A DNA stretch of 64,000 nt, from positions 21,344,438-21,408,437 of the forward strand of contig NC_054888.1 in the NCBI RefSeq assembly GCF_018320785.1. Direction: 5' to 3'. The notes beneath the pieces are model-generated. The model worked only from the letters and a program-made list of their open reading frames with translations, was not told the DNA's origin and did no database searches. Position 1 is the stretch's first letter; the number at the start of each line of letters is the position of its first letter. The position numbers and the translations under genes were made by a program. The stretch comes from Cheilinus undulatus (taxonomy: Eukaryota; Chordata; Actinopteri; Labriformes; Labridae). Positions 16,974 through 64,000 of the stretch are shown piece after piece.

Positions 16974-26325
<9,352 letters not shown>

Positions 26326-38002: not shown

Positions 38003-43585
<5,583 letters not shown>

Positions 43586-44293: not shown

Positions 44294-45259
44294 TACACTA
44301 TATTGCCAAAAGTATTTGCTCACCTGACTTGACTCGCATATGAACTTAAGTGACATCCCATTCTTAATCCATAGGGTTTAATATTACATTGGTCCACCCT
44401 TTGCAGCTATAACAGCTTCAACTCTTCTGGGAAGGCTTTCCACAAGGTTTAGGAGTGTGTTCATGGGAATTTTTCACCATTCTTCCAGAAGTGCATTTGT
44501 GAGGTCACACACTGATGTTGGACCAGAAGGCCTGGCTCTCAGTCTCCGCTCTAATTCATCCTAAAGGTGTTCTATGGGGTTGAGGTCAGGACTCTGTGCA
44601 GGCCAGTCAAGTTCATCCACACCAAACTCTCTCATCCATGTCTTTATGGACCTTGCTTTGTGCACTGGTGCACAGTCATGTTGGAACAGGAAGGGGCCAT
44701 CCCCAAACTGGTCCCACAAAGTTGGGAGCATGGAGTTGTCCAAAATCTCTCGGTGTGCTGAAGCATTCAGAGTTCCTTTCACTGGAACTAAGGGGCCAAG
44801 CCCAGCTCCTGAAAAACAACCCCACACCACAATCCCCCCTCCACCAAACTTTACACTTGGCACAATGCAGTCAGACAAGTACCGTTCTCCTGACAACCGC
44901 CAAACCCAGACTGGTCCATCAGATTGCCAGATGGAGAATTTGTCACTCCAGAGAAGGCGTCTCCACTGCTCTAGAGTCCAGTGGCGGCGTGCTTTACACC
45001 ACTGCATCCGTTGCTTTCCATCACACTTAGTGATGTATGGCTTGGATGCAGCTGCTCGGCCATGGAAACCCATTCCATGAAGCTCTCTACGCACTGTTCT
45101 TGCGAGCGAGGAAATTTCACGACTGGACTTGTTGCACAGGTGGCATCCTATCACAGTAACACGCTGGAATTCACTGAGCTCCTGAGAGCGAGCCATTCTT
45201 TCACAAATGTTTGTAGAAACAGTCTGCATGCCTAGGTGCTTGATTTTATAGATGAACAT
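44294..45259 (-). mobile_element. Tc1-type transposon, one end lost, internally deleted
   Basis: On the minus strand a 232-residue frame (44561-45259) reads through Tc1 transposase: [20 protein letters not shown], then [36 protein letters not shown] and [15 protein letters not shown]. The helix-turn-helix region before RTVRRELHG is joined out of order, so the N-terminal domain is deleted. A frame stop cuts the C-terminus. The 3' terminal repeat is present near 44294 (TACACTATATTGCCAAAAG). The other terminus is missing. Non-functional. Confidence 0.85.
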
Positions 45260-45965: not shown

Positions 45966-46924
45966 TGGAAACAGTGTGATTTAAAAAAATATTCTTAGTT
46001 TCTTTAAAGCATCTGGAGACCCCTCTCAGTGTCACTGCTGTAGAGATTTTCGTATTCAACAGAACCAATCTCCTACCGTAATAAGACCAAAAATTTTGAA
46101 TCGTTTCAGATTTAGTGTGTGGCCAGCTCCCTTAAAGGTAGAATATCCGACATTTTACACTTAAATGTAGTAAAAATCAAACATATGCCATGTAAATGTT
46201 TTTCTGAGTACAGTATCAACACACTGAATTAAAACTTGGGTACCCTGTAGTTTTGTTTATATGGGATGTTTATAACTGTCCGGACCGGAATGGGGCGGTA
46301 ACCCTCTCCTCCTAGATGCGCCCCCAGGGGGCAGCAGGTAAATGTTTCACCTAGACAGCTGAGAGGAGGGTAAATGGCCGACTGGAGGCCTGCCACCGGC
46401 TTCCCCTCCACCTAAAAAGCCTCGACATTTGTCTTGGAAACCCTCTGACAAAGCGAGAGGAAAAACTAGAGTAAATATCGGATTTGCTTTTCCCTAACAA
46501 GCTCTGGCATGACTCAGAACTGGCTTTGCTTCTTCCTGGATGCTTAAGTAGGCTACATCTTTTCATTCACTGTGCGCATTGTCTCAACATTTGTCCAGTG
46601 TTGCTTTATTGACACAGCACTATTCTCATGGTTGGACATTTAAGCTGAGTGTGACAGCGCTGATGTTTTCATGTTTAATTGATGCTACAACATAACCGGC
46701 CAGGATAAGAAGAGCTGGTGCAGCTGAAAAAAGATATCAGCAGTAACGGTCGCCTTGAACGTTACATATAAACTTGTATATGATGGCTGTGTGGGATCAA
46801 CAGAAGCTAAAGCGGCGGCTGTGTGTCAAAAACTCCTCTTTGTTTACATTTTCAAGGCTCTGCTCTCCTACGACACCCAGTGGGGAAAAAAAATCGCAGT
46901 CTACCGTTAACTACGTGACCGCAT

Positions 46925-47199
46925 CACGTGACTACATTTTTAGGGAAAGTCCCTCTCTACATCAAAGGGGTAAAAAAACCGCTTTGTGACGTCACAGAGC
47001 AGCACATTTCTGTTCCTAAGGTTTTAGTGATGATCCATGCACCCTAAATTCTGAACACCATAGTAACCAGTGTCAGTTAGGAGTCAGTTCATTTGACTGA
47101 ACAGAAAAACAGAACAGAAAAGGTGAATTTAGTAAGGGAAGAAACATTCTCTCTTACAATCAACGATTAGTTCATTCATTATTTCTGTTGAAATTACAG
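46925..47199 (+). promoter_or_regulatory. Candidate promoter and mini-intron of the coiled-coil gene
   Basis: An E-box CACGTG at 46925-46930 and a full palindromic CRE TGACGTCA at 46987-46994 lie about 220-280 bases before the start codon. A donor (AAAAG followed by GTGAAT, 47122/47123) and an acceptor (AAATTACAG, ending 47199) would remove a 77-base intron, a typical size for fish introns. The second exon would begin 8 bases before the ATG. Transcription is inferred only. Confidence 0.4.
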
Positions 47200-47207
47200 C
47201 TGTAAAA

Positions 47208-50200
47208 ATGACACAAATTGGGTTTGACAAACTCTGCTATAAAATATACAACCAGGCGTCCTTTCCCGGACCACCGTCGCCTGAGGAAAAAGCCAATCCT
47301 CAGAGTCTTCGGATGTTTATCCGTAACGCTCGCGAGGAATTGGGAAAATGCCGACTGACAGAGAAGTGGGCCGTGTATACCGCAGTAGTGAACGGCCATG
47401 TTAGATGGGAGGAGTTCCTTACGGCTGAATTGGGGAAAGAAAGGGCAGAGAAGGCCCAACTTAGAACCCAAATTCAAGATTTTGAAACGGAGCTTAACGT
47501 AAAGAGCACGAGGAACCTGGAATTAGAGCAGAATTTGGCTGAACTAAGAGATGAGCTGCAGAGTCTCAAAGGGACTCTCAATGTGGAGAGTCCAGAAGTG
47601 CTCGCTGAGGCTGCCGACGCTGATAAAATAGCGTTAGAGGGCATTCAGCGTCAGGGTGATGAGCTTGAACCTCTGAGAGGTAAAGAAACAACCCTAAACG
47701 AAAGAGGCACGCAAACTGAAAGATTAGAAGAGGATAATCTGGCTTTAAATGAGGACAATAAAGGAACCCTGGAGGACAGAGACGCCTATATTGAACGATT
47801 AGAACGAGAAAACAGGTTTCAAACTCACCAAACTCAGCATCAAAATGATGAGCTTGAATCTTTAATCGGTACCCTAAAAGAAAAAGACGCACAAATTCAA
47901 AGACTAGAGGAGGATAACTTAGCTTTAAATAATATAAATAATGTTCTCCTAGAAGAAGAAAAACAATACAACATCGAACGATCGAATGAAGAAAAGCTAG
48001 CTCTAATCGAAGAAAATACGCATCAGAATGACGAGCTTGAATCTTTAAAAGGTATCCTAAACGAAAAAGAGGCACACATTAAAACACTAGAAGAGGATAA
48101 CTTATTTTTAAGTGATGAAAATAACATACTCCTGGAAGAAAAAGACATCTTCAAACAATTGGCAGAAGAAAAGCTAGCATTGATTGAAGAAAATAAGCAT
48201 CAGAATGATGAGCTTGAATCTTTAATCGGTACCCTAAACGAAAAAGATGCACAAATTAAAACACTGGAAGAGGTTTACTTAATTTTAAATGATGAAATTA
48301 GGAGAGCCCTGGAAGAAAGAGACACCATCAAACGATTGGAAGAAGAAACAAGAGCTTTAATGGGCGAAACAATAGCTTTAATGGACAAAATTCATCGTCA
48401 CAATGATGAATTTGAATCTGTAAGAGGTAAAGAGACAACCCTAAATGAAAGAGGCACCCAAACCGAAAGCTCAGAAGAGGATAAATTGGCCTTACATGAT
48501 GAAATTAGGAGAACTCTGGAAGACAGAGACACTTACATTCAACGTTTAGAAGCAGAAAACGTAGCCTTAATCGAAGAAAATAATCATCAGAATGATGAGT
48601 GTGAATCTTTAATCGATACCTTAGACGAACGTGACGCACAAATTCAAAGACTAGAAGAGGAAAACTTGGCTCTAAATGATGAAAATAAGAGAACCCTGGA
48701 AGAAAGTGACGTCAACATCCAACGATTGGAAAAAGAAATAATGGCTTTAATCGAAGGAAATAAGCGTCAGAAGGATGAGCGTGAATCTTTAATCGGTACC
48801 TTAGACGAACGTGACGCACAAATTCAAAAACTAAAAGAGGACAACTTAGCTTTAAATGATGAAATTAGGAGGACCGTGGAAGACAGAGAGTGTTACATTG
48901 AACGATTAGAAGAAGACAAAATAGCTTCAAAAGTAGAAATTAAGCGTCAGAATGATCAGCTTAAGTCTTTAAAAGGTACCCTAAACGAAAGAGACGCTCA
49001 AATGAAAAGACTAGAAGAGGAAAACTTGGCTCTAAATGATGAAAATAAGAGAACCCTGGAAGAAAGTGACGTCAACATCCAACGATTGGAAAAAGAAATA
49101 ATGGCTTTAATCGAAGGAAATAAGCATCAGAAGGATGAGCGTGAATCTTTAATCGGTACCTTAGACGAACGTGACGCACAAATTCAAAGACTAAAAGAGG
49201 ACAACTTAGCTTTAAAAGATGAAATTAGGGGGATCGTGGAAGCCAGAGTGTGTTACATTGAACAATTAGAAGAAGACAAAATAGCTTTAATGGACGAAAT
49301 TAAGTGTCAGAATGAAAAAATATGGAGAACTCTGGAAGAAAAAGAAGCTTACACTGAACGATTGGAAGAAGAAAAGATGGCTTCAAATGACAAAATTAAG
49401 CGTCAGAACGATGAGCTTAAATCTTTAAAAGGTACCCTAAACGAAAGAGACGCTCAAATTGGAAGACTAGAAGAGGAAAACTTGGCTCTAAATGATGAAA
49501 ATAAGAGAACCCTGGAAGAAAGTGACGTCAACATCCAACGATTGGAAAAAGAAATATTTGGTTTAATGGATGAAATGAAGCGTCAGAATGATGAACTTGA
49601 ATCTGTAAGAGGTAAAGAGATTACCCTAAATGAAAGAGGCACCCAAACTGAAAGCTCAGAAGAAGATAAATTGGCCTTACATGATGAAATTAGGAGAACT
49701 CTGGAAGAAAAAGACGTCAAAATTGAACGATTGGAGAAAGAAAAACTAGCTTTAATGGTCGAAATGAAGCGTCAGGATGATAAAACATGGAAAACCCTGG
49801 AAGAAAGAAAATTTTACATTTCACGATTACAAGAAGAAATACTAGCACATGAAGAAATTAAGCTTCAAAAAGGTGAATTTGAGTTATTAAGAGTTAAAAG
49901 GACAATCCTTAACGAAAGAGACGCACAAATTAAAAGATTAGAAGAGGATAAATTGGCTTTAAATAAGGAAATTTGTCTAACCCTGGAGGAAAGAGACGTT
50001 TACATTGAACGTTTAGAACGAGAAAAAATGTTTCTGGTCCACCAAAGTCAGCGTCGAAATGATGAGCTTGAATTTTTAAGAGGTACTCAAAATGAAAAAG
50101 ATGCGCAAATGAAAAGACCAAAAGAGGATATATTGACCTTAGTTGATGACATTAGGAGAACCCTGGAAGAAAGAGATGTTTACATTGAACAATTAGGAGA

Positions 50201-51416
50201 AAAAACATTTCTAATCCACCAAACTCCGTGTCAACATGATGAGGTTGAATCTTTAAGAGGTACCCTAAATGAAAGAGATGCGCAAATTAAAAGATTAGAA
50301 GAGGAGAAATTGGATTTAAATGAGGAAATACGGAGAGTCCTGGAAGAAAGAGATGTTTACATTGAACAATTAAAACAAAAAATAGCTTCAGTGGAAGAAA
50401 TTCAGCATCAGAATGATGGGCTTGAATCTGTGAAAGGTAAAGAGACAACCCAAAATGAAAGAGGTACCCAAACTAAAAGATCAGAAGACGCGCACATGGT
50501 AACTTTAAAAGTAAAAATGAGTCTACCTCTTGAGGCACTGAGAATCCTGACGAATGACGGGACAACCCCAAGTACCTCCATGGGCTGTCTAGAAGAGGGT
50601 ACATTAGCCGTGGGTGAGGAAAATCAGTGCATCCACGACAACCTCAACACACAGGTGGAGCCGAGGGAGGAGCAGGAATCGGCTGGCAACGCAGGTTCAG
50701 CAGAGGAAACTCAGATGTCAGAGGATCATCTTGAAGAGACGGTTCCTGAATCTGACTGGACAACCCCAAGTACCTCCATGGGCTGTCTAGAAGAGGGAAC
50801 ACTAGCCGTGGATGAGGAAAATCAGTGCATCCATGACAACCTCAACACACAGGTGGAGCCGAGGCAGGAGCAGGAATCGGCTGGCACAGCAAGTTCAGCA
50901 GAGGAAACTCAGATGGCCGAGGAGAGGGAAAGACTGATGTCAGAGGATCATCTTGAGGAGACAGTTCCTGAATCTGACTGGACAACCCCAAGTACCTCCA
51001 TGGGCTGTCTAGAAGAGGGAACACTAGCCGTGGATGAGGAAAATCAGTGCATCCATGACAACCTCAACACACAGGTGGAGCCGAGGCAGGAGCAGGAATC
51101 GGCTGACACAGCAGGTTCAGCAGAGGAAACTCAGATGGCTGAGGAGAGGGAAAGACTGATGTCAGAGGATCATCTTGAGGAGGCGGTCCCTGAATCCCAG
51201 CAGCTGCAGAGTCCTGCAGCAGAAGTTCAGAAACCAGGTGTCTGGAGGCGCATTGGCAGAGGACTAGCCAAAGTTGGGTGCTGGGCTGGTGTTGCTGCTG
51301 TTGGTGCTTTCGTTTATGCGAATGCAATGTACACTGCACCTCCTGAATGCCCTGTGATGCACTGCTATGGTGGACCATTTGAGCCCTACTTGACCTTATG
51401 CTATAACCCCCAGTAG
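47208..51416 (+). CDS. Long coiled-coil protein with C-terminal hydrophobic anchor, family not recognised
   Basis: A single open frame of 1402 residues without introns; the start has A at -3 (TAAAAATGA). Residues 1-75 look globular (FDKLCYKIYNQASFPG, RMFIRNAREELGKCRL, WAVYTAVVNGHVRWEEFL). Residues 76 to about 1090 are continuous heptad-like, charged coiled coil made of about 60-residue modules (LNERDAQI.RLEEDNLALNDE type). Residues 1119-1327 hold three acidic repeats of 66-74 residues (TTPSTSMGCLEEGTLAV). Near the C-terminus is one hydrophobic, glycine/alanine-rich segment (about 1356-1375), preceded by basic WRRIGRGLAK and followed by a short cysteine-containing tail. This layout resembles tail-anchored tethers such as some golgins, but no homologue is named. 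The stop codon is the first three bases of a hAT element. It could be a lineage-specific gene or the relic of one. Confidence 0.75.
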   Translation: MTQIGFDKLCYKIYNQASFPGPPSPEEKANPQSLRMFIRNAREELGKCRLTEKWAVYTAVVNGHVRWEEFLTAELGKERAEKAQLRTQIQDFETELNVKSTRNLELEQNLAELRDELQSLKGTLNVESPEVLAEAADADKIALEGIQRQGDELEPLRGKETTLNERGTQTERLEEDNLALNEDNKGTLEDRDAYIERLERENRFQTHQTQHQNDELESLIGTLKEKDAQIQRLEEDNLALNNINNVLLEEEKQYNIERSNEEKLALIEENTHQNDELESLKGILNEKEAHIKTLEEDNLFLSDENNILLEEKDIFKQLAEEKLALIEENKHQNDELESLIGTLNEKDAQIKTLEEVYLILNDEIRRALEERDTIKRLEEETRALMGETIALMDKIHRHNDEFESVRGKETTLNERGTQTESSEEDKLALHDEIRRTLEDRDTYIQRLEAENVALIEENNHQNDECESLIDTLDERDAQIQRLEEENLALNDENKRTLEESDVNIQRLEKEIMALIEGNKRQKDERESLIGTLDERDAQIQKLKEDNLALNDEIRRTVEDRECYIERLEEDKIASKVEIKRQNDQLKSLKGTLNERDAQMKRLEEENLALNDENKRTLEESDVNIQRLEKEIMALIEGNKHQKDERESLIGTLDERDAQIQRLKEDNLALKDEIRGIVEARVCYIEQLEEDKIALMDEIKCQNEKIWRTLEEKEAYTERLEEEKMASNDKIKRQNDELKSLKGTLNERDAQIGRLEEENLALNDENKRTLEESDVNIQRLEKEIFGLMDEMKRQNDELESVRGKEITLNERGTQTESSEEDKLALHDEIRRTLEEKDVKIERLEKEKLALMVEMKRQDDKTWKTLEERKFYISRLQEEILAHEEIKLQKGEFELLRVKRTILNERDAQIKRLEEDKLALNKEICLTLEERDVYIERLEREKMFLVHQSQRRNDELEFLRGTQNEKDAQMKRPKEDILTLVDDIRRTLEERDVYIEQLGEKTFLIHQTPCQHDEVESLRGTLNERDAQIKRLEEEKLDLNEEIRRVLEERDVYIEQLKQKIASVEEIQHQNDGLESVKGKETTQNERGTQTKRSEDAHMVTLKVKMSLPLEALRILTNDGTTPSTSMGCLEEGTLAVGEENQCIHDNLNTQVEPREEQESAGNAGSAEETQMSEDHLEETVPESDWTTPSTSMGCLEEGTLAVDEENQCIHDNLNTQVEPRQEQESAGTASSAEETQMAEERERLMSEDHLEETVPESDWTTPSTSMGCLEEGTLAVDEENQCIHDNLNTQVEPRQEQESADTAGSAEETQMAEERERLMSEDHLEEAVPESQQLQSPAAEVQKPGVWRRIGRGLAKVGCWAGVAAVGAFVYANAMYTAPPECPVMHCYGGPFEPYLTLCYNPQ
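48601..49240 (+). repeat. In-frame 180 bp tandem modules in the coiled-coil gene
   Basis: The word GACGCACAAATT or its near-identical form starts at 48633, 48813, 48993 and 49173, exactly 180 bases apart. The block 48661-48720 is identical to 49021-49080, 360 bases away, and the match continues with few changes to about 48880/49240. A third copy of part of the block begins near 49480. This implies recent duplication of 60-residue and 120-residue units. Confidence 0.9.
50562..51195 (+). repeat. Triplicated C-terminal units in the coiled-coil gene
   Basis: Three near-identical copies begin at 50562, 50760 and 50982 (periods of 198 and 222 bases). The first unit lacks the eight-residue insert AEERERLM. 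Each contains GGGCTGTCTAGAAGAGGG and ends before GATCATCTTGA..CCTGAATC. The frame is kept throughout. Confidence 0.9.
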
Positions 51417-52474
51417 GGATGCACGATATTATCGGTAGTATATCAGTATCGGCCGATAATAGCTTTAAAAAGTTAATTATGGGTATTGGCAGATAGTAAA
51501 ATTTATGCCGATGTGTATGGCCGATAATATGACGTCATAATTAAGCAAATGCGATGATGCCGGACTTGCGCAAACAACAACAATAAACAACATGTCAGCT
51601 GTGTGGGAGAAGTCTGAGGTGTGGGAACAAGACAGCAAAGTAGCTGTTTGCATCGCTTGTAAAGTACATCAGATGCGTGGAGAAGCTCGAGGACATGCCT
51701 TTAACACCACCAGTTTAATTTTGCATCTAAAAAAAATGCAACCTGATGACTACAAGGACTATAAAGAATGGCAAAACTTCGTGCCAGGGAGAACTCGGCA
51801 GCAGCCTCTACTTAAGTCATTCAACAAAGCTAAAAAATACAGCAGTGACCACTCAAAGATAAGGAGCTGAACAGGAAAATCATTGAATTTATAGCTCTTG
51901 ATAATCAGCCTTTCAGCGTGGTAGAATATACCGGCTTGTGATGCATTTAAAGCCCCGCTACGTTATACCTAGCAGGTGCTAATAGCCTTACCTGAACTGC
52001 AAAACTTCGTTTCCAGTCACATAGAGAAGCTCCTCGTTAAACCTAAACATATTAGCTTCACCACGGATATATAGCTATTTCTTTTTTGCACTGTGGAGCT
52101 CAGAGTAAGCAGGTTATTTTGCTGCTGCTTATTACTCTCAAAAATGCAGATGACTTTGGCGGTACTGTTATAAATACATGTAAGCATGTTATACACATGT
52201 AACCCAAAGACATTACTGTAAGTTTGTCATTAGTGTATGGCTGTATTTGGAAAAAACAAACAAACAATATATCCTTCAGTTCTGATAAAAATCAAATGTT
52301 TTGTCAGTTTGTACAAAAATAGACTACCAATATTTTAAAAAAAATGTAGTCCATGATAGAATTGGTGTTTATAACAGTGGAAAAAAATGTAATTAAATAT
52401 CGGTATCGGCCAAAATTTGTTTCAAAATATCGGCATATCGGACACCGGCAAAAATTCAATATCGTGCATCCCTA
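51414..52474. mobile_element. hAT transposon with decayed ZBED-type transposase
   Basis: The ends TAGGGATGCACGATATT and ATATCGTGCATCCCTA are inverted. Flanks are ACCCCCAG (51406-51413) and ACCCCAAG (52475-52482), an 8 bp duplication with one difference. A frame at 51592-51870 looks like a BED zinc-finger domain (CIAC, then a histidine-containing LHLKKMQ). Downstream, in shifted frames, HISFTTDI (about 52050-52075) is typical of hAT transposase. Stops and shifts make it non-functional. It is inserted at the stop of the 47208 gene. Confidence 0.9.
51592..51870 (+). pseudogene. BED-finger remnant of hAT transposase
   Basis: A 92-residue frame with the order SEVWEQDSKVAVCIACK, then NTTSLILHLKK, as in BED finger domains of hAT transposases (CxxC followed by a helix with histidine). 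It ends in a premature stop. The rest of the catalytic domain continues only as broken pieces. Confidence 0.65.
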
Positions 52475-53080
52475 ACCCCAAGGCATAGTTGTAATGTGGA
52501 AGCATTATATTATGTGGGACGTGGGTTAAATTAACACCTGGCTTTAAAAATAAATAAATAAATAAATGAATAAAAATAAAAAATAGAATCAGGGTCCATT
52601 TGTTTATAATCATCCAGAATATTTCTTTTTACAATTATCATTCATGACTCTCAGCAGTAACATGCTTTTTAGACATCATGTTATATACATGTAATACCTC
52701 TTCTGTTTATGTACTTTATTTTAACAAAAACAATGATCCATTGTCATTTTTTATTTATCTAATGTTTAAAAATATCATGTGGTGCAATTGTCTGACGATT
52801 ACTTCTGCTTTTGAAACTACTTTGAAATGTGCCTAATTTTATCCAGATTTTATTTTCTGCCCCATCTGGCATTTTTTTCCAAAGTGTTTTGGAATACCGT
52901 AAAACTTTGTCCACTTTATGAAATGTCATGTGGAGCGACCATCAAGAACTCCGCCTATTGTGGCTTTGTTGTTAAGTTCCATTCCAAGACAGGAAATTGC
53001 ATCATCCACTAGTTTGCCAGGGACCTTTTTAATGGCTAGTATGGCAGGGTCACTTTTGACTGTCATGTAGTATGACCTTA

Positions 53081-62348: not shown

Positions 62349-62739
62349 GTTTGTGTTTTTATTTTTGCTCTGACCTCACATGGCAGCAGCCTGTGCATTT
62401 AGGCATGTCGACATGGGAAGATGGTGAGCTAATGTTTAAAGTGAGCATCGGAATGGGGAATAAACATGATTCATTCATGGTTGTTGGTTGTCCCACTTAA
62501 ATCTGTTATCACTATCAGAAAGTGTTTTTAGGAGAAGCTCTACTTTAACCGCTATAATTACTATAATCAGTCCTCTCCATTTCATTATCATCTTGGCTGC
62601 TGTTACACTGTTCAGTTGCCATCAAACGTTGTAAAAACTGTTAATTCTTCACACACTGTTTCCTCTTTACTGCCATTACAGCAATATGAAAGAAAATACA
62701 TTTAAGATTGATACATGGACAGGAAAGGAAATTTATCTC

Positions 62740-64000
62740 TTTCTACATCTCCCTCTTCTATTTCTCTGCATCTCTCTCTACCTTTTCTACATCTCTCACT
62801 ACTTTTTCTAACTCTCTCACTACTTTTTCTACATGTCTCACTACTTTTTCTAAATCTCTCTCTTTGTTTCTACATCTCTCTCTACTTTTTCTACATCTTT
62901 CTCTACTTTTCTACAGCTCTAACTACTTTTTCTACATCTCACTCTACTTTTTCTAAATCTCTCACTACTTTTTCTACATCTCACTCTTCTTTTTTCTATA
63001 TCTCTCATTTCTTTTTCTATATCTCTCTCTATTTTTCTACATCTCTTACTATTTTTCTAAAGCTCTCTCTACTTTTTCTACTTCTCACTACTTTTTCTGC
63101 ACCCCCTCTACTTTTTCTACACCTCTCTCTACTTTTCTTCATCTCTCTGTACTTTTTCTACATCTCACTCTACTTTTTCTGCATCTCTCTCTACTTTTTT
63201 TACATCTCACTACTTTTCCTTCATCTCTCTCTACTTTTTCTATATCTCACTCTACTTTTTCTATATCTCTCGCTTCTTTTTCTACATCTCTTTCTACTTT
63301 TTCTGCATCTCTCTTTACTTTTCTTCATCTCACTCTACTTTTTCTAAATCTCTCACTACTTTTTCTACATCTCACTCTTCTTTTTTCTATATCTCTCACT
63401 TCTTTTTCTATATCTCTCTCTATTTTTCTACATCTCTTACTATTTTTCTAAAGCTCTCTCTACTTTTTCTACTTCTCACTACTTTTTCTGCACCCCCTCT
63501 ACTTTTTCTACACCTCTCTCTACTTTTCTTCATCTCTCTGTACTTTTTCTACATCTCACTCTACTTTTTCTGCATCTCTCTCTACTTTTTTTACATCTCA
63601 CTACTTTTCCTTCATCTCTCTCTACTTTTTCTATACCTCTACTTTTTCTACATCTCACTCTACTTTTTCTATAACTCTCGCTTCTTTTTCTACATCTCTT
63701 TCTACTTTTTCTGCATCTCTCTTTACTTTTCTTCATCTCTCTCTACTTTTCTGCATCTCTCTTACTACTTTTTCTACATCTCACTCTACTTTTTCTACAT
63801 CTCCCACTACTTTTTCTACATCTCTCACTACTTTTTCTATATCTCACTCTACTTTTTCTATATATCTCACTTCTTTTTTTACATCTCTACTTTTTCTTCA
63901 TCTCTCTTTACTTTTCTACATCTCTCTACTTTTCTACAACTCTCTCTACTTTTTCTACATCTCACTCTACTTTTTCTGCATCTGTCTCCACTTTTCTTCA
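62740..64000. repeat. Pyrimidine-rich satellite-like array
   Basis: Continuous repetition of CTACTTTTTCTACATCTCTCT and variants (unit about 18-22 bases) to the window's end. A higher-order copy is visible: 62940-63330 and 63331 onward match for nearly 391 bases. The reading frames through it (for example 210 residues at 62715) are translations of the repeat and not genes. Confidence 0.9.

What the first reader, a model, noticed from the sequence alone, without database searches (positions are those of the whole stretch)
51406..52482. A hAT transposon terminus supplies the stop codon of the 1402-residue gene
The TAG that ends the frame (51414-51416) is the first three bases of the element's TAGGG end. 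The duplicated flanks show the ancestral sequence: without the insertion the frame would run on through CCC, AAG or CAG, GCA and then hit TAG, so the protein lost only about one residue. The insertion is thus nearly neutral for the protein but replaces its 3' UTR with transposon sequence. Seen directly: TSD, TIR and frame. Inferred: that the gene is expressed.
Basis: seen in the sequence. Interest (0 to 1): 0.72.

Follow-up and report, generated by a model that had tools for sequence, protein, structure and literature searches.

The report
Jumping gene provides a stop codon
A non-autonomous DNA transposon landed one codon before the end of a long repetitive reading frame, so its first three letters now serve as the stop signal, which on paper costs the protein one amino acid and puts transposon sequence right behind it; this is a neat but ordinary insertion.

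Summary
A 1061-bp element (51414-52474) has perfect 17-bp terminal inverted repeats and a 7-of-8 target-site duplication; its first bases, TAG, are the stop codon of the 1402-codon frame 47208-51416. A shorter relative at 42263-42697 with an 8-of-8 duplication fixes the boundary at this TAG. Joined flanks read NP(Q/K)A-stop, 1403 residues: one alanine lost. The element is best read as a non-autonomous Ac-type hAT; transposase similarity is only faint. Replacement of the 3' UTR is not shown: the element holds one AATAAA (51582), about what this window's AATAAA density predicts (1.5 per 1061 bp), and the old downstream sequence with six AATAAA (52549-52580) remains. Empty site, expression, 3' ends and fixation could not be tested: no fish genome or transcripts were in reach, and the own-genome search did not complete. 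In either orientation, one of three codon registers gives an immediate stop, so the stop itself is unremarkable; only the site, one codon before the end, is lucky, and tolerance would select it. Related known cases: Ac in maize Zm4CL1, hAT-10 in Xenopus dm-W. Interest is low.

The parts
47208..51416 (+). 1402-codon open frame, repetitive coiled-coil-like protein with a hydrophobic stretch near the C-terminus; stop TAG from the element
51406..51413 (.). left target-site duplication ACCCCCAG
51414..51416 (+). TAG: first three bases of the element and stop codon of the frame
51414..51430 (+). left terminal inverted repeat, 17 bp
51414..52474 (+). non-autonomous hAT-type element, 1061 bp
51541..51867 (+). 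open stretch of 109 codons; from its M18 a faint BED zinc-finger similarity below the curated cut-off
51582..51587 (+). AATAAA inside the element, followed by GTGTGGG twice (51601-51607, 51619-51625): candidate poly(A) signal, no more than the window's density predicts
52392..52397 (+). ATTAAA inside the element, a second weaker candidate poly(A) signal
52458..52474 (-). right terminal inverted repeat, 17 bp
52475..52482 (.). right target-site duplication ACCCCAAG
52486..52488 (+). TAG that would have ended the frame before the insertion
52549..52580 (+). six AATAAA, some overlapping; candidate original poly(A) region
42263..42697 (-). shorter relative of the element, TIR TAGGGATGCACAATATT, 8 of 8 TSD ATAAAAAT

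Best explanation
A non-autonomous Ac-type hAT transposon inserted by ordinary cut-and-paste transposition into the last sense codons of a long repetitive gene. The 8-bp duplication left the codons before the junction intact, and the TAGGG end happened to lie in the reading frame, so translation now stops at the first triplet of the transposon, one codon earlier than before. The insertion was tolerated because it removes one residue. The mRNA probably either ends at a signal inside the element (AATAAA with 168 element bases before it) or runs through the element to the old poly(A) region. Shown: TSD, TIR, frame, joined-flank reading. Inferred: tolerance, expression, where the mRNA ends.
For: TIR 17 of 17 and TSD 7 of 8; relative in the same window with the same terminal TAGGG and 8 of 8 TSD, ends 81 of 109 and 66 of 86 aligned positions alike; joined flanks stay in frame and hit a stop after one codon; the frame is 1402 codons, far above shuffles, with codon-position base bias (GC 0.56, 0.31, 0.37 at positions 1, 2, 3) and dN below dS between its three C-terminal repeats (0.029/0.143, 0.051/0.172, 0.030/0.090). 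Ac/Ds ends are C/TAGGGATGAAA with 8-bp TSD (PMC3260210, passages).
Against: One TSD mismatch. Transposase similarity is weak: zf-BED E 0.028 (14.9 bits, cut-off 20.6) for one 66-residue piece, E 0.46 for the 109-residue stretch that holds it, nothing for two further pieces. Signs of coding selection are modest: in 35 overlapping, non-independent self-matches, gap lengths were multiples of three in 111 of 264, and mismatches fell 1313, 1331, 1738 on codon positions 1, 2, 3; the C-terminal repeats differ at only 9 to 14 bases per pair. No confirmed relative of the gene and no empty site was found.
Confidence: 0.85

Rival explanations
1. The transposon was co-opted: it provides both the stop codon and the working poly(A) site, giving the gene a short all-transposon 3' UTR with new regulation.
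For: AATAAA at 51582 followed by GTGTGGG 14-20 and 32-38 nt after the hexamer.
Against: The window has 89 AATAAA on the + strand, 1.5 per 1061 bp, so one in the element is no more than expected; the old signals remain at 52549-52580; no transcript data.
Confidence: 0.15
2. The open frame is a decaying or unexpressed gene, so where it stops has no consequence and the insertion is simply neutral.
For: No confirmed protein relative in the searched collections beyond coiled-coil-type matches; no expression evidence.
Against: 1402 codons open against at most 193 in shuffles; codon-position bias; dN below dS in C-terminal repeats.
Confidence: 0.2
3. The real coding end lies elsewhere, for example a splice donor before 51414 joins another exon, and the TAG is not the used stop.
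For: Gene structure was not established; a plausible 3' splice site (TTCTGTTGAAATTACAG, 47183-47199) lies just before the ATG, so an intron upstream is possible (by eye).
Against: No match to the two strict donor patterns searched on the + strand of 46501-52600, which would miss weaker donors; joined flanks give a stop after one codon.
Confidence: 0.08

Closest known systems
Ac/Ds elements of maize (hAT superfamily)
   Same: C/TAGGGATG start of the TIR, 8-bp TSD, internally deleted non-autonomous forms (PMC3260210, passages); a 658-bp Ac insertion in exon 1 of maize Zm4CL1 caused a premature stop (PMC6456989, passages)
   Different: TIR is 17 bp with another inner sequence; the insertion here sits one codon before the end and is nearly harmless on paper, whereas the truncated Zm4CL1 proteins had no enzyme activity. 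The passages seen do not say that the Zm4CL1 stop lies in the TIR
dm-W exon 4 of Xenopus, derived from hAT-10
   Same: hAT DNA forms the coding end of a vertebrate gene including its stop (PMC9250109, passages)
   Different: There the transposon DNA encodes 71 residues with tested function, and the stop arose by a later substitution inside element-derived DNA; here it adds no residue, the stop came with the TIR itself, and no function is shown
MITE-like internally deleted hAT copies (e.g. BuT2 derivatives)
   Same: short, TIR and 8-bp TSD kept, outer ends conserved between copies (PMC3942097, passages)
   Different: only two copies seen here (in one 64-kb window), different length

Membership tests
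hAT superfamily DNA transposon | 8-bp target-site duplication | tested here: met
   7 of 8 here, 8 of 8 in the relative at 42263-42697
hAT superfamily DNA transposon | short TIRs, 10-25 bp | tested here: met
   17 of 17 bp; definition from PMC3942097 (passages)
hAT superfamily DNA transposon | Ac-type terminal sequence C/TAGGGATG | tested here: met
   TAGGGATG at both ends of both copies, and nowhere else in the window; PMC3260210 (passages)
hAT superfamily DNA transposon | hAT transposase homology | tested here: inconclusive
   zf-BED below cut-off; two other pieces gave none; solved structures gave only unrelated chains at E 0.77-0.98
hAT superfamily DNA transposon | subterminal repeats | tested here: inconclusive
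   TATCGG six and CCGATA two times in the element, all within its outer 115 bp, of 12 and 16 on the + strand of the whole window; no shuffle control
autonomous hAT element | 2.5-5 kb with intact transposase gene | tested here: not met
   1061 bp; longest sense stretch lying inside the element 109 codons
transposon-derived functional gene end (as dm-W) | transcript and function of the transposon part shown | not testable with these tools
   no transcript data on hand; own-genome search not answered

The most novel reading that the evidence does not exclude
The hAT terminus has been kept as the gene's stop together with the AATAAA inside the element (51582), so that one insertion replaced stop codon, 3' UTR and poly(A) site in a single step while sparing the protein.
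Probability: 0.12. Interest if true: 0.35.

Novelty: new member of a known kind. Interest (0 to 1): 0.22.

Why it matters
If the gene is expressed, it is a clean natural example of how the fixed TAG at Ac-type hAT ends lets an insertion end a reading frame with no added residues, and of which insertions selection lets through. It would be a useful test case for UTR replacement, not a new mechanism.

Tried and rejected
Chance inverted repeat: rejected by the window scan. Shifted element boundary that would take the TAG out of the element: rejected by the relative copy, whose 8 of 8 TSD ends exactly before TAGGG. A relative of the gene's C-terminus in viral contigs: 9 stretches matched a pattern and one passed tblastn (L001, 23 residues, 57%). 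On reading, the matched 69 bases give a hydrophobic stretch, and the only frame of 40 or more codons listed there lies on the other strand; taken as chance. Other searches for relatives gave none: TIR in viral contigs 0, whole protein in viral contigs none, N-terminal 151 residues in genome contigs none confirmed of 117 stretches, the 109-residue transposase stretch in plasmids none at E 1e-5. The Pfam XLF_CC match of the gene passes its curated cut-off (32.9 against 27 bits) but its best stretch covers 28 residues of a coiled-coil model and it is taken as a look-alike; 11 further Pfam matches of the N-terminal part are all below their cut-offs, and two PDB matches at E 0.26 and 0.8 are taken as chance. 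Rfam: no match in the window at gathering score. The RNA fold of the element pairs its two ends, as an inverted repeat must; it has no shuffle control and nothing was built on it.

Literature: 15 of 64 papers listed; 5 of 5; 10 of 10; none; none; 4 of 4; 10 of 14 listed, all unrelated by title; 12 of 39 listed. Passages were seen of PMC9250109, PMC3260210, PMC3942097, PMC6456989 and PMC9341512; no whole text was read.

That internal pieces such as NRKIIEFIALDNQPFSVVE look like hAT transposase is recalled from general knowledge; no call supports it.

Full report
What is there. The frame 47208-51416 on the + strand is open for 1402 codons and ends with TAG at 51414-51416. That TAG is also the start of TAGGGATGCACGATATT, which recurs as a perfect reverse complement at 52458-52474. 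The flanking octamers are ACCCCCAG (51406-51413) and ACCCCAAG (52475-52482), alike at 7 of 8 positions. The element between them is 1061 bp.

Is the boundary right? The window holds one more copy of the family, 42263-42697, in the opposite orientation when the matching ends are paired. Its TIR is TAGGGATGCACAATATT at both ends, and its flanks are ATAAAAAT on both sides, 8 of 8. Its ends match this element at 81 of 109 and 66 of 86 aligned positions. In both copies the first element base is the T of TAGGG, so the stop codon is element sequence and not target sequence. In a scan of the whole window, 186 perfect 17-bp inverted pairs within 3 kb were found. Four had flanks alike at 7 or more of 8 positions: two in an AT run and these two elements.

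The empty site. Joined flanks read TAT AAC CCC CAG GCA TAG (left TSD copy kept) or ... AAG GCA TAG (right copy kept), 1403 sense codons. Thus on paper the insertion cost one alanine. The last residue but one cannot be settled, since the TSD copies differ in that codon.

Is it a gene? 1402 open codons against at most 193 in 200 mononucleotide shuffles of the window; GC at codon positions 0.56, 0.31, 0.37. The body is built of repeats with periods near 180 bp (177-189; 276 and 360 were also reported) and the C-terminal part of three repeats of about 200-220 bp. Between the three C-terminal repeats dN/dS pairs are 0.029/0.143, 0.051/0.172 and 0.030/0.090 on 66, 65 and 73 codons, with only 10, 14 and 9 base changes. 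In 35 overlapping, non-independent self-matches of the whole frame, 18917 of 19680 aligned bases stay in codon register and mismatches fall 1313, 1331, 1738 on positions 1, 2, 3; gap lengths are multiples of three in 111 of 264, which is not strong. The most hydrophobic 19-residue stretch is 1353-1371 (mean Kyte-Doolittle value 1.55). One Pfam model passes its cut-off, the coiled-coil model XLF_CC, which I take as a look-alike; no confirmed relative was found elsewhere. It is probably a real, fast-evolving gene (inference); expression is unknown.

The element. At 51541-51867 it has a 109-codon open stretch in the same direction as the gene, with a faint BED zinc-finger match for a 66-residue piece of it (E 0.028, 14.9 bits, cut-off 20.6; E 0.46 for the whole stretch). 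No longer sense frame lies inside the element. With 8-bp TSD, 17-bp TIR and an Ac-type TAGGGATG end (PMC3260210, passages seen; PMC3942097, passages seen) it is best filed as a non-autonomous hAT; the transposase test is inconclusive.

How special is the stop? Because both ends of the element begin TAG, every insertion in one of the three codon registers stops translation at once, in either orientation; in the other registers 6 to 27 further codons would be read, the junction codon included. So an immediate stop is a one-in-three outcome. What is lucky is only that the site lies one codon before the end, and that is what tolerance of the insertion would select.

The 3' UTR. The element does not delete the old downstream sequence. 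It carries one AATAAA at 51582, followed by GTGTGGG at 51601 and 51619, and one ATTAAA at 52392; the old region carries six AATAAA at 52549-52580. As a yardstick, the window's + strand holds 89 AATAAA, 1.5 per 1061 bp, so the one in the element is no sign of selection. Which signal is used cannot be told from DNA. 'Replaces its 3' UTR' is therefore one of two possibilities.

Known background. An Ac insertion in exon 1 of maize Zm4CL1 gave a premature stop (PMC6456989, passages). The last exon of Xenopus dm-W derives from hAT-10, its stop made by a later substitution (PMC9250109, passages). [quoted passage not shown] The present case is a new example of this kind. I did not find this very insertion in print in the searches named under Tried and rejected, but those searches could not have found the gene by name.

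Limits. The collections offered hold no fish genomes by their descriptions, and the own-genome search did not complete in seven tries, so neither empty site nor copy number was tested.

Noticed in passing
42263-42697: Second, 435-bp copy of the same hAT family with 8 of 8 TSD ATAAAAAT; only its two ends matched the first copy by blastn.
   Followed up: yes
47208-51413: Large open frame made of repeats near 180 bp and three C-terminal repeats about 91-94% alike, with a hydrophobic stretch near the end; no confirmed relative found.
   Followed up: partly
47183-47199: Good-looking 3' splice site just before the ATG of the long frame (by eye), suggesting an upstream non-coding exon.
   Followed up: no
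44561-45259: 232-codon frame on the - strand that reads like a Tc1-type transposase (recalled, not searched).
   Followed up: no
20620-21348: 242-codon frame that reads like a LINE reverse transcriptase (recalled, not searched).
   Followed up: no
62715-63347: 210-codon frame of simple repeats rich in S, L and F, probably a satellite and not a gene.
   Followed up: no
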